Shown: in pieces, positions 41,079 through 53,762 of the stretch
Layout of the letters: each line of letters opens with the position of its first letter
How positions within the stretch are numbered: the first letter of the stretch is position 1
NCBI RefSeq assembly: GCF_900109455.1
Contig: NZ_FOAG01000002.1
Location: 62,001 to 126,000 of the forward strand
Direction: 5' to 3'
DNA length: 64,000 nt
Source: Roseovarius azorensis
GTDB taxonomy: Bacteria; Pseudomonadota; Alphaproteobacteria; Rhodobacterales; Rhodobacteraceae
Notes under the pieces: generated by a model
The model's database searches: none
The model's input: only the letters and a program-made list of their open reading frames with translations
Told to the model about the DNA's origin: nothing
Program-made: the position numbers and the translations under genes

Positions 41079-41501
41079 CTACTCCTCCCCCTCCACTTTT
41101 CCCCGCAGCGCCTTGACCTCGCCGCGCAGCGTCTTGGCCTTGAGCCGCCGCTTCTTCGATCCCAGCGTCGGTTTCGTCGCCACCCGCCGCTTGGGCGCAA
41201 CGCTGGCCTGCCGGATCAGATCGGCCAGCCGTTCGCGCACGATCTCGCGGTTGCGGGTCTGGCTGCGGGTCTCGTCACACTGCAGGACGACCGCCCCCTC
41301 CTTGGTCCAGCGCCGCCCGGCCAGGCGGCGCAACCGCACCTTGACCGGAGCGGGCAGGTTGGGCGAGCGTTCGGCCTCGAACCGCAATTCGACCGCGCTC
41401 GACACCTTGTTCACATTTTGTCCGCCGGGACCCGAGGCGCGGATGAACTGTTCCGTCAGTTCCCAGTCCTCGATGGCGATCTGATCGTTGATCCTCAGCA
41501 T
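41079..41501 (-). CDS. arfB: Peptidyl-tRNA hydrolase ArfB (ribosome rescue)
   Basis: Protein of 140 residues, as expected for ArfB/YaeJ. The catalytic GGQ is at residues 26-28 (ASGPGGQNVNK), and the basic C-terminal tail (KKRRLKAKTLRGEVKALRGK) inserts in the empty mRNA channel of a stalled ribosome. It releases stuck nascent chains, a backup to tmRNA. Upstream lies a conspicuous 347-base stretch with an extended -10 element and a perfect palindrome that probably control it. Confidence 0.9.
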   Translation of the reverse strand: MLRINDQIAIEDWELTEQFIRASGPGGQNVNKVSSAVELRFEAERSPNLPAPVKVRLRRLAGRRWTKEGAVVLQCDETRSQTRNREIVRERLADLIRQASVAPKRRVATKPTLGSKKRRLKAKTLRGEVKALRGKVEGEE

Positions 41502-41581: not shown

Positions 41582-41588
41582 GATCAGA

Positions 41589-41757
41589 AGGGCCGCCCCG
41601 ATCCCGGAACGGCCCTCTGGAAGTTACGGAGGTGGGCCGGTTAGGCGCACCAATTCGGGTTTCGCTTCCGCCTCGGGGCTGCCCTAGGCGATGACCTCCC
41701 GAACTGTTCCGACACCTCGCTCCAATACCTCTGCAGACACTGGACCACCTCCTTTCG
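41589..41757 (-). ncRNA. Candidate structured RNA with sequestered ribosome binding site
   Basis: On the minus strand this stretch begins with AAAGGAGGTG, a full match to the 16S anti-Shine-Dalgarno sequence, and carries CCACCTCC some 110 bases later (plus-strand 41628-41635) that can pair with GGAGGTGG (41745-41752), adding two more pairs after one mismatch. Near its end AGGGCCG and CGGCCCT (41610-41616 and 41589-41595) form a hairpin. A TTGACA at 41798-41803 could be the -35 of its promoter, but no good -10 is visible. The RNA itself and its ends are inferred. Confidence 0.3.
41684..41740 (-). CDS. Possible 18-residue leader peptide
   Basis: GTG start with AAAGGAGGTG ending 5 bases upstream (GGAGG 7 bases away), reading MSAEVLERGVGTVREVIA and a TAG stop. 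The ribosome binding site is as strong as any in the window, but the peptide is short and unrecognised. A second frame through the same bases is open from 41748 to 41641 and would give a basic peptide ending RRKRNPNWCA (GTG starts at 41748 or 41715). Only one, or neither, may be translated. Confidence 0.3.
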   Translation of the reverse strand: MSAEVLERGVGTVREVIA

Positions 41758-41776: not shown

Positions 41777-41848
41777 GGTTGCCACAAATTCTGCCGTTGT
41801 CAAAACAAAATGATGTGGTGCAGATAAATTTTCCCGCAGGATGATGAT

Positions 41849-52541: not shown

Positions 52542-53696
52542 TCATGCGTTGACGGACAGCGCCGCGATCTCAGCGTAGAACGCCCATTCGATCCAGGGCA
52601 TGAGCGCGCTCACATCCGGCGTCTCGACCGTTCCGCCACACCAGATCCGCAAACCGGCGGGCGCGTCGCGATAGGCGCCGATGTCATAGGCCACACCTGC
52701 AGTTTCCAGCCGCTTGGCAACCGCCTTGGCAAAGGCAGCGCCGTCGGTGATCCGCGCATCCCCGAACGTGAGACAGACCGAGGTATTCGAGCGGATGGCC
52801 GGATCACTGGCCAGAAAGGACAGCCAATCATGCCGCCCCACGAATGCGTCCACCACCGCCAGATTGGCGTCGGCGCGGGCGCGCAGCCCCTTGAGTCCCC
52901 CGACAGAGGCGGCCCAGTCGAGCGCCAGGAGATAATCCTCGACCGCCAGCATCGACGGCGTGTTGATCGTCTCGCCCACAAAGATGCCCTCGATCAGCTT
53001 GCCACTCTTGGTCAGGCGGAAAATCTTGGGCATCGGCCAGGGCGGCGTGTAGCTTTCCAGCCGCTCCACCGCGCGGGGGCTGAGGATCAGCATGCCATGC
53101 GCCGCTTCGCCGCCCAGCACCTTCTGCCAGGAGAACGTGGTCGCGTCGAGCTTGTCCCAGGGCAGATCCTGCGCAAAGGCGGCAGAGGTCGCATCACAGA
53201 TCGTCAGCCCCTCCCGATCCGCCTTGATCCAGTCGCCATTCGGCACGCGCACGCCAGAGGTGGTGCCATTCCAGGTAAAGACGACATCCTTGTCCGTATC
53301 GACCGTGGCAAGGTCAACGATCTGGCCGTAATCGGCGGTCTTGACCACCGCGTCGAGTTTCAGCTGCTTGACCACATCGGTGACCCAGCCCGCGCCAAAG
53401 CTCTCCCATGCCAGCATTTCCACCGGGCGCGCGCCCAGCAGGTTCCACATCGCCATTTCCACGGCGCCTGTGTCGGAGGCGGGCACGATGCCGATCCGGT
53501 AATCGGCGGGCACGCCGAGAATGGCGCGGGTCTGCTCGATAGCGGTCTTGAGACGCGCCTTGCCTACAGCCGCGCGATGGCTCCGGCCCAGCGGGGCGTC
53601 AGATAGTTTGTCCAGGGTGAATGTGGGGATCTTGGCACAGGGGCCAGAGGAAAAACGCGGATTTCCCGGCCGCGTTGCCGGTGCTTCAATAGCCAT
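52542..53696 (-). CDS. serC: Phosphoserine aminotransferase
   Basis: Class V PLP aminotransferase of 384 residues that converts 3-phosphohydroxypyruvate to phosphoserine using glutamate. The PLP lysine is in [14 protein letters not shown] near residue 190-203. Start [15 protein letters not shown]-like sequence matches the alphaproteobacterial form. Upstream, the conserved serC leader lies within 60 bases of the ATG. The operon continues into serA; serB is divergent, so the whole serine pathway is here. Confidence 0.93.
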
Positions 53697-53698
53697 GC

Positions 53699-53762
53699 AG
53701 CTACCCTTTCAGATAAGCGCCCCTCGTTGGGGAGGGGTGTCCCACCTGCGGGATTACGGCCA
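53699..53762 (-). promoter_or_regulatory. serC leader RNA
   Basis: Minus-strand leader ending at the serC start, with the hairpin CCCCTC-(6)-GAGGGG (arms 53732-53737 and 53720-53725 on plus) preceded by CCCGCAGGTGGG and followed by GCGCTTATCTGAAAGGGTAG. I recognise it as the serC motif known upstream of serC in alphaproteobacteria (Rfam RF00517). What it senses is not established. Confidence 0.7.

What the first reader, a model, noticed from the sequence alone, without database searches (positions are those of the whole stretch)
41589..41757. Possible riboregulator: full-strength ribosome binding site paired with an anti-SD mimic
The minus strand has AAAGGAGGTG before a GTG, and 110 bases on CCACCTCC, which can close the site in an 8-bp stem (plus two pairs after a mismatch), then a GC hairpin. 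Two overlapping short frames are open, one encoding MSAEVLERGVGTVREVIA, the other ending RRKRNPNWCA. Such a design would let a ribosome or RNA switch open the site. It lies upstream of a ribosome-rescue gene, a fitting target for translation sensing.
Basis: partly seen in the sequence, partly recalled or inferred. Interest (0 to 1): 0.55.

Follow-up and report, generated by a model that had tools for sequence, protein, structure and literature searches.

The report
Ribosome-gated small RNA with 18-codon ORF
Next to a ribosome-rescue gene lies a conserved, intricately folded small RNA that carries an unusually long match to the ribosome's docking sequence, hides it inside its own fold, and encodes a peptide of 18 amino acids, so it looks like a switch that responds to ribosome binding.

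Summary
The minus-strand element 41764-41586 is a conserved, self-contained unit: promoter-like TTGACA, ribosome-binding site, ORF, folded RNA, terminator. In 133 Rhodobacteraceae copies the SD:anti-SD stem (7 bp) is kept in 98.5% of cells, but by G-U changes only, because the SD never varies; other helices covary. The SD segment GAAAGGAGGTGGTCCAG is a 17-nt complement of the 16S rRNA 3' end; the best of 136 other ORFs in the window reaches 9. The first short frame is a genuine ORF: 127 of 133 copies have exactly 18 codons, closed by TAG, TGA or TAA, although codons 16-18 vary freely. The second frame (…NWCA) is not conserved. The element is a divergent relative of Rfam RF01867 (Caulobacter sRNA CC2171; 47 bits, below the 75-bit cut-off), a family of Alphaproteobacteria for which I found no functional paper. 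Best reading: a stand-alone, ribosome-gated small mRNA/dual-function RNA whose fold competes with the ribosome. Transcription, translation and any target are untested here.

The parts
41798..41803 (-). -35-like TTGACA of the element's own promoter (TSS not mapped)
   Evidence: Sequence; by eye, a TTTTGACA...TGTGGCA block is common upstream of the genus copies and of the family copies shown. No canonical -10 seen; promoter inferred.
41740..41756 (-). GAAAGGAGGTGGTCCAG: extended SD, complementary over 17 nt (one G-U) to the 16S rRNA 3' end CTGGATCACCTCCTTTC
   Evidence: 16S 3' end read from the own genome. 85 of 110 family copies pair 17/17, 22 pair 16/17, one each 15, 14 and 12; in 28 relatives outside the family 9, 16 and 3 pair 17, 16 and 15.
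41684..41740 (-). 18-codon ORF MSAEVLERGVGTVREVIA, GTG start, TAG stop
   Evidence: 127 of 133 copies exactly 18 codons; stops over all 133: TAG 57, TGA 57, TAA 19; starts GTG 131, ATG 1, TTG 1; 76 of 80 in a named sample.
41745..41752 (-). P1 5' arm, GGAGGTGG (SD core)
   Evidence: 7-bp core forms standard pairs in 98.5% of 923 cells in 132 distinct rows; 8th pair only partly kept.
41628..41635 (-). P1 3' arm, CCACCTCC (anti-SD mimic)
   Evidence: In the 7-bp core 96 cells are changed to a G-U pair and 14 cells are unpaired.
41721..41744 (-). P2 hairpin TCCAGTGTCT/AGGTATTGGA enclosing the start codon
   Evidence: 95.2% of cells paired over 8 pairs; MFE fold of the window copy.
41651..41706 (-). 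P3 CAGTTCGGG (41706-41698) with CCCGAATTG (41659-41651)
   Evidence: Alignment-free: own partner score 18.4 vs 14.8 with partners from other genera; control region 13.7 vs 13.8 (104 of 110 copies, 6 dropped because the 5' arm was not located).
41669..41690 (-). P4 hairpin CGCCTAGGG/CCCCGAGGCG holding the stop codon in its 5' arm
   Evidence: MFE fold and alignment by eye; not counted separately.
41617..41627 (-). Post-anti-SD tail that pairs with the loop of P2 (pseudoknot) in many family copies; register in the window copy uncertain
   Evidence: Five pairs all with two-sided changes, 75 such cells vs 31 in shuffles, though the number of pair types is not raised (261 of 500 shuffles reach it). 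Of 110 rows GAAAG:CTTTC 26, GAGAA:TTCTC 13, GAGTG:ACTC 12, but GAGTG:TCTC 13 with only 3 pairs. Two alignment-free tests did not discriminate.
41586..41617 (-). Intrinsic terminator GAGGGCCGTTCCG/CGGGGCGGCCCTT + T-rich tail
   Evidence: Terminator-like hairpin found by a permissive script in 133 of 133 family copies; on the alignment 98.7% of stem cells paired, two-sided changes in 7 of 8 pairs.
41079..41501 (-). arfB (alternative ribosome-rescue hydrolase), downstream neighbour; probably not part of the RNA unit
   Evidence: NCBIfam NF006718, 182.8 bits, cut-off 100; Pfam RF-1. Downstream on the same strand in 114 of 133 copies.

Best explanation
A stand-alone structured small RNA, about 180 nt, that works as a ribosome-gated switch and is also a tiny mRNA. 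Shown by sequence: (1) its 5' segment is a 17-nt complement of the 16S 3' end with a start codon at normal spacing; (2) in Rhodobacteraceae this segment is predicted to be closed by an anti-SD mimic downstream, with the start codon in a hairpin; (3) an ORF of nearly fixed length, 18 codons, ends inside the next hairpin; (4) a terminator-like hairpin follows. Inferred: a free 30S subunit with an accessible 3' tail outcompetes the internal anti-SD, the ORF is translated, and the ribosome stopping at codon 18 unfolds P2, P3, P4 and the long-range pairing, freeing the C-rich 3' part. RNA stability and/or base-pairing to other mRNAs would thus depend on how many ribosomes are free. The peptide is probably not the main product, because its last residues vary freely and its sequence differs outside the family, whereas the stop position is kept in Rhodobacteraceae. 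The output is unknown; I think control of the RNA's own stability or pairing in trans more likely than control of arfB.
For: 17-nt anti-16S complement, 17 vs at most 9 for 136 other ORFs in the window, and its core found at no other start-like place in the genome. SD sequestration far above body-shuffled controls (0.039 vs 0.278 unpaired), and pairing to the 16S tail still gains 17 kcal/mol on average, range 8 to 25. P1 core 98.5% paired. Structure as a whole: 135 two-sided cells vs 46 in shuffles, 0 of 500 shuffles reach it. ORF exactly 18 codons in 127 of 133 and 76 of 80 copies with all three stops, while codons 16-18 show 16, 15 and 12 different residues in 104 copies. Terminator-like hairpin 133 of 133. 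Relatives across the class with the same order of parts and no arfB beside them. Closest experimental precedent in the same class: a S. meliloti uORF leader whose RBS is masked by pairing and which its authors propose monitors ribosome availability (PMC12218461, abstract and four sections read).
Against: No transcript, 5' end, ribosome footprint or phenotype was examined. P1 shows no two-sided compensation in its 7-bp core because the SD is invariant, so its pairing could in principle be a by-product of two separately conserved sequences. In 28 relatives outside the family the SD is not sequestered more than in shuffles (0.41 vs 0.365). Two alignment-free tests of the pseudoknot failed to discriminate. 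Conserved codons 6-12 would also fit a functional peptide. Relatedness of the sequences was not modelled with a tree, so shuffle controls are not probabilities.
Confidence: 0.45

Rival explanations
1. Leader/attenuator of arfB: the element is the 5' UTR of arfB, and the state of the leader ribosome decides whether polymerase reads through the terminator into the rescue gene.
For: arfB downstream on the same strand in 114 of 133 copies; gap from terminator hairpin to arfB start as small as 10 nt and below 30 nt in 21 of 114, leaving little room for another promoter.
Against: arfB not found downstream in 19 of 133 (two of these hold under 500 nt of flank). Not within 1.5 kb in 20 of 80 named copies: of these 4 hold under 1 kb of flank and 3 have arfB 1.6-2.9 kb downstream. 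Found beside 0 of 28 loci outside the family (L061-L084 and L086-L090 without L077). No pairing that could compete with the terminator: 0 of 110 stronger than the hairpin, own no better than cross partners (-13.7 vs -14.3 kcal/mol; shuffled -12.6).
Confidence: 0.15
2. A small mRNA whose 18-residue peptide is the functional product; the RNA fold only tunes its synthesis.
For: Near-fixed ORF length and all three stops; L6, E7, G9, V10, G11, T12 kept in 91-103 of 104 copies.
Against: Residues 16-18 are nearly unconstrained; outside the family the peptides look unrelated (MSHCH... or others, 18-26 residues). The conserved codons coincide with RNA helices, and AGA is used at codon 3 in 92 of 104.
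Confidence: 0.2
3. A plain trans-acting sRNA; the ORF and SD are incidental, and the SD-like segment acts only by binding 16S rRNA or by protecting the 5' end, as STAB-SD elements do.
For: Rfam files the related family as an sRNA; the 5' segment is complementary to 16S over 17 nt; STAB-SD precedent in Bacillus thuringiensis cry3A (PMC4113751, passages).
Against: A start codon at normal spacing is kept in 133 of 133 and the stop codon is exact in 127 of 133. Codon 19 is TGG, the one T-purine-purine codon that is not a stop, in none of the rows printed.
Confidence: 0.15
4. Chance: a strong RBS near an unrelated CCACCTCC, no function.
For: CCACCTCC is only 8 nt.
Against: Matches in 181 of 198 genomes, 71 of the 88 not used for the model, covariation above shuffles, 127 of 133 ORFs of the same length.
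Confidence: 0.01

Closest known systems
Rfam RF01867, CC2171 (Caulobacter sRNA)
   Same: Same order of parts: CAACAA...GAAAGGAGGTG(A/G)TCCAGTGTC at the 5' end, short body, hairpin terminator; match 1-159 of 159. The Rhodobacteraceae model R1 finds many of the same loci outside the family: of 67 listed R1 matches 33 overlap RF01867 matches, and 31 of the 37 that are at least 130 nt long.
   Different: 47 bits, below the 75-bit gathering score. The body does not align, the CAUUGUC:GACAAUG stem is replaced by other sequence at the same place, and the SD is closed by a separate anti-SD arm. Rfam describes it as an sRNA; no ORF is mentioned in the matches or passages I saw.
S. meliloti duf1127-1 leader uORF (PMC12218461)
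   Same: Alphaproteobacterial ORF whose RBS is masked by pairing when no ribosome binds; its authors propose that it monitors ribosome availability and translation efficiency.
   Different: There the uORF precedes a gene, no intrinsic terminator was found and Rho is suggested. Here the unit ends in a terminator-like hairpin and seems to stand alone. Sequence relation not tested.
STAB-SD 5' stabilisers (cry3A; PMC4113751, passages)
   Same: SD-like complement of the 16S 3' end near the 5' end of an RNA, able to hold a 30S subunit.
   Different: STAB-SD does not direct initiation; here a start codon and ORF are conserved.
Dual-function sRNAs with short ORFs (Spot 42, rnTrpL; named in the passages and references shown)
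   Same: Small RNA with an embedded ORF of under 20 codons.
   Different: No trans target known here; ORF length is kept and the last codons are unconstrained.
arfA autoregulation in E. coli (start of abstract of PMC10107115; otherwise recalled)
   Same: Ribosome-rescue gene under translation-responsive RNA control.
   Different: arfA is controlled through its own non-stop mRNA; here the element is a separate unit and arfB is only a frequent neighbour.

Membership tests
RF01867 (CC2171) | Score at or above the gathering cut-off (75 bits) | tested here: not met
   47 bits, E 4.2e-9; of three other family copies listed 31.1, 33.4 and 43.8 bits, a fourth (L103) not listed at E up to 0.01.
RF01867 (CC2171) | Match over the whole model | tested here: met
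   Positions 1-159 of 159, but the middle is bridged without aligned consensus.
RF01867 (CC2171) | 5' conserved SD segment and hairpin terminator | tested here: met
RF01867 (CC2171) | Long-range stem between codons 2-6 and the stretch before the terminator | tested here: inconclusive
   Present in 28 relatives (own -10.2 vs cross -7.1 kcal/mol, median rank 0.11, own best in 6; control -6.0 vs -5.9). In Rhodobacteraceae a 5-bp loop:tail pairing at the same place covaries, but alignment-free tests do not discriminate.
RF01867 (CC2171) | Expressed as a separate small RNA | not testable with these tools
   No RNA-seq available.
Transcription attenuator / leader peptide of arfB | Downstream regulated gene always present | tested here: not met
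   114 of 133, 60 of 80 within 1.5 kb, 0 of 28 outside the family.
Transcription attenuator / leader peptide of arfB | Anti-terminator competing with the terminator | tested here: not met
   0 of 110 stronger than the hairpin.
Dual-function sRNA / small mRNA | Conserved ORF with SD and start codon | tested here: met
Dual-function sRNA / small mRNA | ORF translated in vivo | not testable with these tools
   Needs ribosome profiling.
Dual-function sRNA / small mRNA | Trans base-pairing target | not tested
   No target search was made.

The most novel reading that the evidence does not exclude
An RNA widespread in Alphaproteobacteria that measures free 30S subunits: it carries a 17-nt antisense copy of the 16S 3' end and, in Rhodobacteraceae and some relatives, an internal mimic of that 16S end (CCACCTCC after the ORF, or CTGGATC..CGCCTC inside it). 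Ribosome tail and mimic compete for one strand. The winning state, read out by a ribosome stopping at a fixed codon, decides whether the RNA stays closed or exposes an anti-SD strand that can act on other mRNAs.
Probability: 0.25. Interest if true: 0.82.

Novelty: new variant of a known kind. Interest (0 to 1): 0.6.

Why it matters
If correct, a widespread small RNA of Alphaproteobacteria, filed so far as an uncharacterised Caulobacter sRNA family, is a ribosome-binding, translated, fold-controlled device. It would offer a simple genetic read-out of ribosome availability in bacteria where strong SDs can be rare (24.6% of Caulobacter CDSs have an SD; PMC4117421, passages). It also supplies a covariation-supported structure for the Rhodobacteraceae branch that Rfam's cut-off misses.

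Tried and rejected
Second frame (…NWCA): rejected, frame not kept. Anti-terminator for arfB: none found. SD sequestration as a general feature of relatives: not supported by ensemble folding outside the family, although the SD segment pairs with a stretch inside the ORF with z below -2 in 11 of 28 (mean z -1.47). Pseudoknot by alignment-free scoring: own 11.4 vs cross 11.1, and own -6.6 vs cross -6.9 kcal/mol; only the column count supports it. Plasmids: no match. One count (16S pairs 7-9 of 17 in the family) used a register off by one base and is replaced; the SD window of the relatives was also one base off. RNAalifold on the whole alignment did not recover P3 or P4, whose arms are gapped. 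Literature: searches (all 10 used) gave no functional study of CC2171 in the held library. It is named in the Rfam 15 paper (PMC11701678, passage) and as MH_s33 in Mesorhizobium huakuii (PMC5596092, passage). The original Caulobacter sRNA report is recalled, not read. Passages or outlines of PMC4117421, PMC5082802, PMC10117765, PMC4809877 (R. pomeroyi) and PMC5107571 (P. denitrificans) were seen; none could be tied to this locus.

Full report
What is there. The minus strand between the murein endopeptidase gene mepA (42769-41849) and arfB (41501-41079) holds a compact unit (gene names). A TTGACA block at 41803-41798 is followed by GAAAGGAGGTGGTCCAG (41756-41740), a GTG start (41740), an 18-codon frame to TAG (41686-41684), CCACCTCC (41635-41628) and a GC hairpin with a T-rich tail (41617-41586).

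It is not a single-genome curiosity. A DNA search matched 23 of 23 same-genus genomes, some only in part, and 160 of 198 genomes of the family, one per genus, at E up to 0.001. A covariance model built from 133 copies (R1) matched 181 of the 198. Of these, 110 supplied sequences to the model, so 71 of 88 are independent, and some of those matches are weak.

The ribosome-binding site is exceptional. The genome's 16S rRNA gene reads CTGGATCACCTCCTTTCTAAGG at its 3' end; the exact mature end was not mapped. The element's segment pairs with CTGGATCACCTCCTTTC over 17 contiguous nucleotides with one G-U. In the family 85 of 110 copies pair at 17 of 17, 22 at 16, and one each at 15, 14 and 12; in 28 relatives outside the family 9, 16 and 3 pair at 17, 16 and 15. 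Those relatives were chosen by a model that contains this segment, so their values are not independent. Among 136 ORFs of 150 or more codons in the window, many of them spurious, the best start reaches 9. The core GAAAGGAGGTG occurs four times in the genome: the complement of the 16S end, this element, and two places with no ATG or TTG in the next 25 nt.

The fold is conserved. On 132 distinct rows a 33-pair structure has 93.4% standard pairs and 135 cells changed on both sides, against 46 in shuffles, with none of 500 shuffles as high. The SD:anti-SD stem (7 bp) is 98.5% paired. Its 3' arm drifts mostly by pairing-preserving changes (96 cells, among them 41 C-to-U at one position and 33 A-to-G at another, against 14 unpaired cells), but because the SD never changes there is no two-sided compensation. 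P3 pairs better with its own partner than with partners from other genera, 18.4 against 14.8, while a control region shows no difference (104 of 110 copies). A loop:tail pseudoknot has two-sided changes in all five pairs, 75 cells against 31 in shuffles, with 80.8% of cells paired. It shows matched sequence sets such as GAAAG:CTTTC (26 of 110 rows) and GAGAA:TTCTC (13), but also 13 rows GAGTG:TCTC with only three pairs. The number of its pair types is not above shuffles, and two alignment-free tests of the same pairing did not discriminate. A terminator-like hairpin was found in 133 of 133 by a permissive search, and its stem covaries.

The short frame is a real ORF by its pattern of change. 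Of 133 copies, 127 have exactly 18 codons; the other six have 12, 17, 19, 20, 22 and 24. Stops over all 133 are TAG 57, TGA 57 and TAA 19. In the named sample 76 of 80 have 18 codons and one runs off its contig. The two samples overlap in part. In the 104 genus-level copies with 18 codons, positions 16, 17 and 18 carry 16, 15 and 12 different residues, while L6, E7, G9, V10, G11 and T12 are kept in 91-103. RNA pairing would tolerate TGG at codon 19, yet it is not seen in the rows printed. So the place where the ribosome stops seems to matter more than the last residues it adds. The second frame, ending NWCA in the window, is not kept.

Relation to known families. Rfam RF01867 (CC2171, a Caulobacter sRNA) matches the window from the first to the last model position at 47 bits, below its 75-bit cut-off. 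Of four other family copies tested, three score 31-44 bits and one, L103, is not listed. RF01867 itself matches 61 of 289 class genomes (9 over the cut-off) and 55 of 299 phylum genomes (10 over the cut-off) at E up to 0.001. All 55 in the phylum sample are of this class, although the answer does not say how many genomes of other classes were drawn. Of 14 control genomes it rings in one, Caulobacter. The model made from Rhodobacteraceae finds many of the same places outside the family: 33 of 67 listed matches overlap listed RF01867 matches, and 31 of the 37 at least 130 nt long. Both models share the SD segment and the terminator, so this shows the same loci rather than a wholly independent proof. 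In 28 such relatives the ORFs have 18-26 codons, often MSHCH…. A long-range stem joins codons 2-6 to the stretch before the terminator (own -10.2 against cross -7.1 kcal/mol, control -6.0 against -5.9), and the SD pairs with a stretch inside the ORF with z below -2 in 11 of 28. By ensemble folding, however, their SD is not specially hidden (0.41 against 0.365 in shuffles). The hidden SD is therefore a feature of the Rhodobacteraceae branch.

arfB. The gene follows on the same strand in 114 of 133 copies, with a gap from the terminator hairpin of 10 to 838 nt, median 55, below 30 nt in 21. That is compatible with read-through expression in some species. But it is not within 1.5 kb in 20 of 80 named copies (4 of them with under 1 kb of flank, 3 with arfB 1.6-2.9 kb downstream), including 7 of 7 Paracoccus, and it is beside 0 of 28 loci outside the family. 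No alternative pairing competes with the terminator. I read arfB as a frequent neighbour, not as the defined target. A review passage says arfB is essential in Caulobacter without trans-translation (PMC8012679, passages); the passages seen say nothing of this RNA.

How it probably works. Shown by sequence: complement to 16S, predicted closed SD, ORF of kept length, stop inside a hairpin, terminator-like hairpin. Inferred: a free 30S opens the stem (co-folding with a 16-nt 16S tail gains 17 kcal/mol on average over the closed RNA), the ORF is translated, and the stopping ribosome keeps the middle of the RNA open. The consequence could be RNA stability or exposure of the C-rich 3' part to other RNAs. 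The nearest experimental precedent is a S. meliloti leader in which an RBS masked by pairing is proposed to report ribosome availability (PMC12218461: abstract and sections 8, 9, 11, 12 read). A second one is the STAB-SD of cry3A (PMC4113751, passages). Extended SD pairing has been reported to govern initiation in S. aureus (PMC13009471, abstract).

Limits. No expression data were available. Relatedness among the 133 copies was not modelled, so shuffle counts are descriptive. The promoter is inferred from one hexamer and its surroundings. No target search was made. That no functional paper was found is true only of the held library and the ten searches named.

Noticed in passing
53696-53747 (-): serC leader (RF00517), 71 bits, the only gathering-level Rfam match in the window.
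   Followed up: no
L062, L064, L067, L068 (relatives outside the family): The recurring peptide stretch around W-I is encoded by CTGGAT(C/T)..., which resembles the 16S 3' end itself; peptide conservation may be RNA conservation.
   Followed up: partly
Family copies, codon 3: AGA is used for Arg at codon 3 in 92 of 104 copies; it lies in the loop of the proposed pseudoknot.
   Followed up: no
L073 and L062, downstream of the element: By eye only, the element of L073 is followed closely by what looks like the 4.5S (SRP) RNA gene; the L062 neighbour looks like a YaiI-type protein.
   Followed up: no
Upstream of family copies, about 30-55 nt before the SD: Common TTTTGACAaacacaAAATcTGTGgCA block without a usual -10 hexamer; the sigma factor is unclear.
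   Followed up: no
L024, L046, L060 between P3 and the anti-SD: A variable insert sits between P3 and the widely kept CCTAAC motif; the role of CCTAAC is unknown.
   Followed up: no
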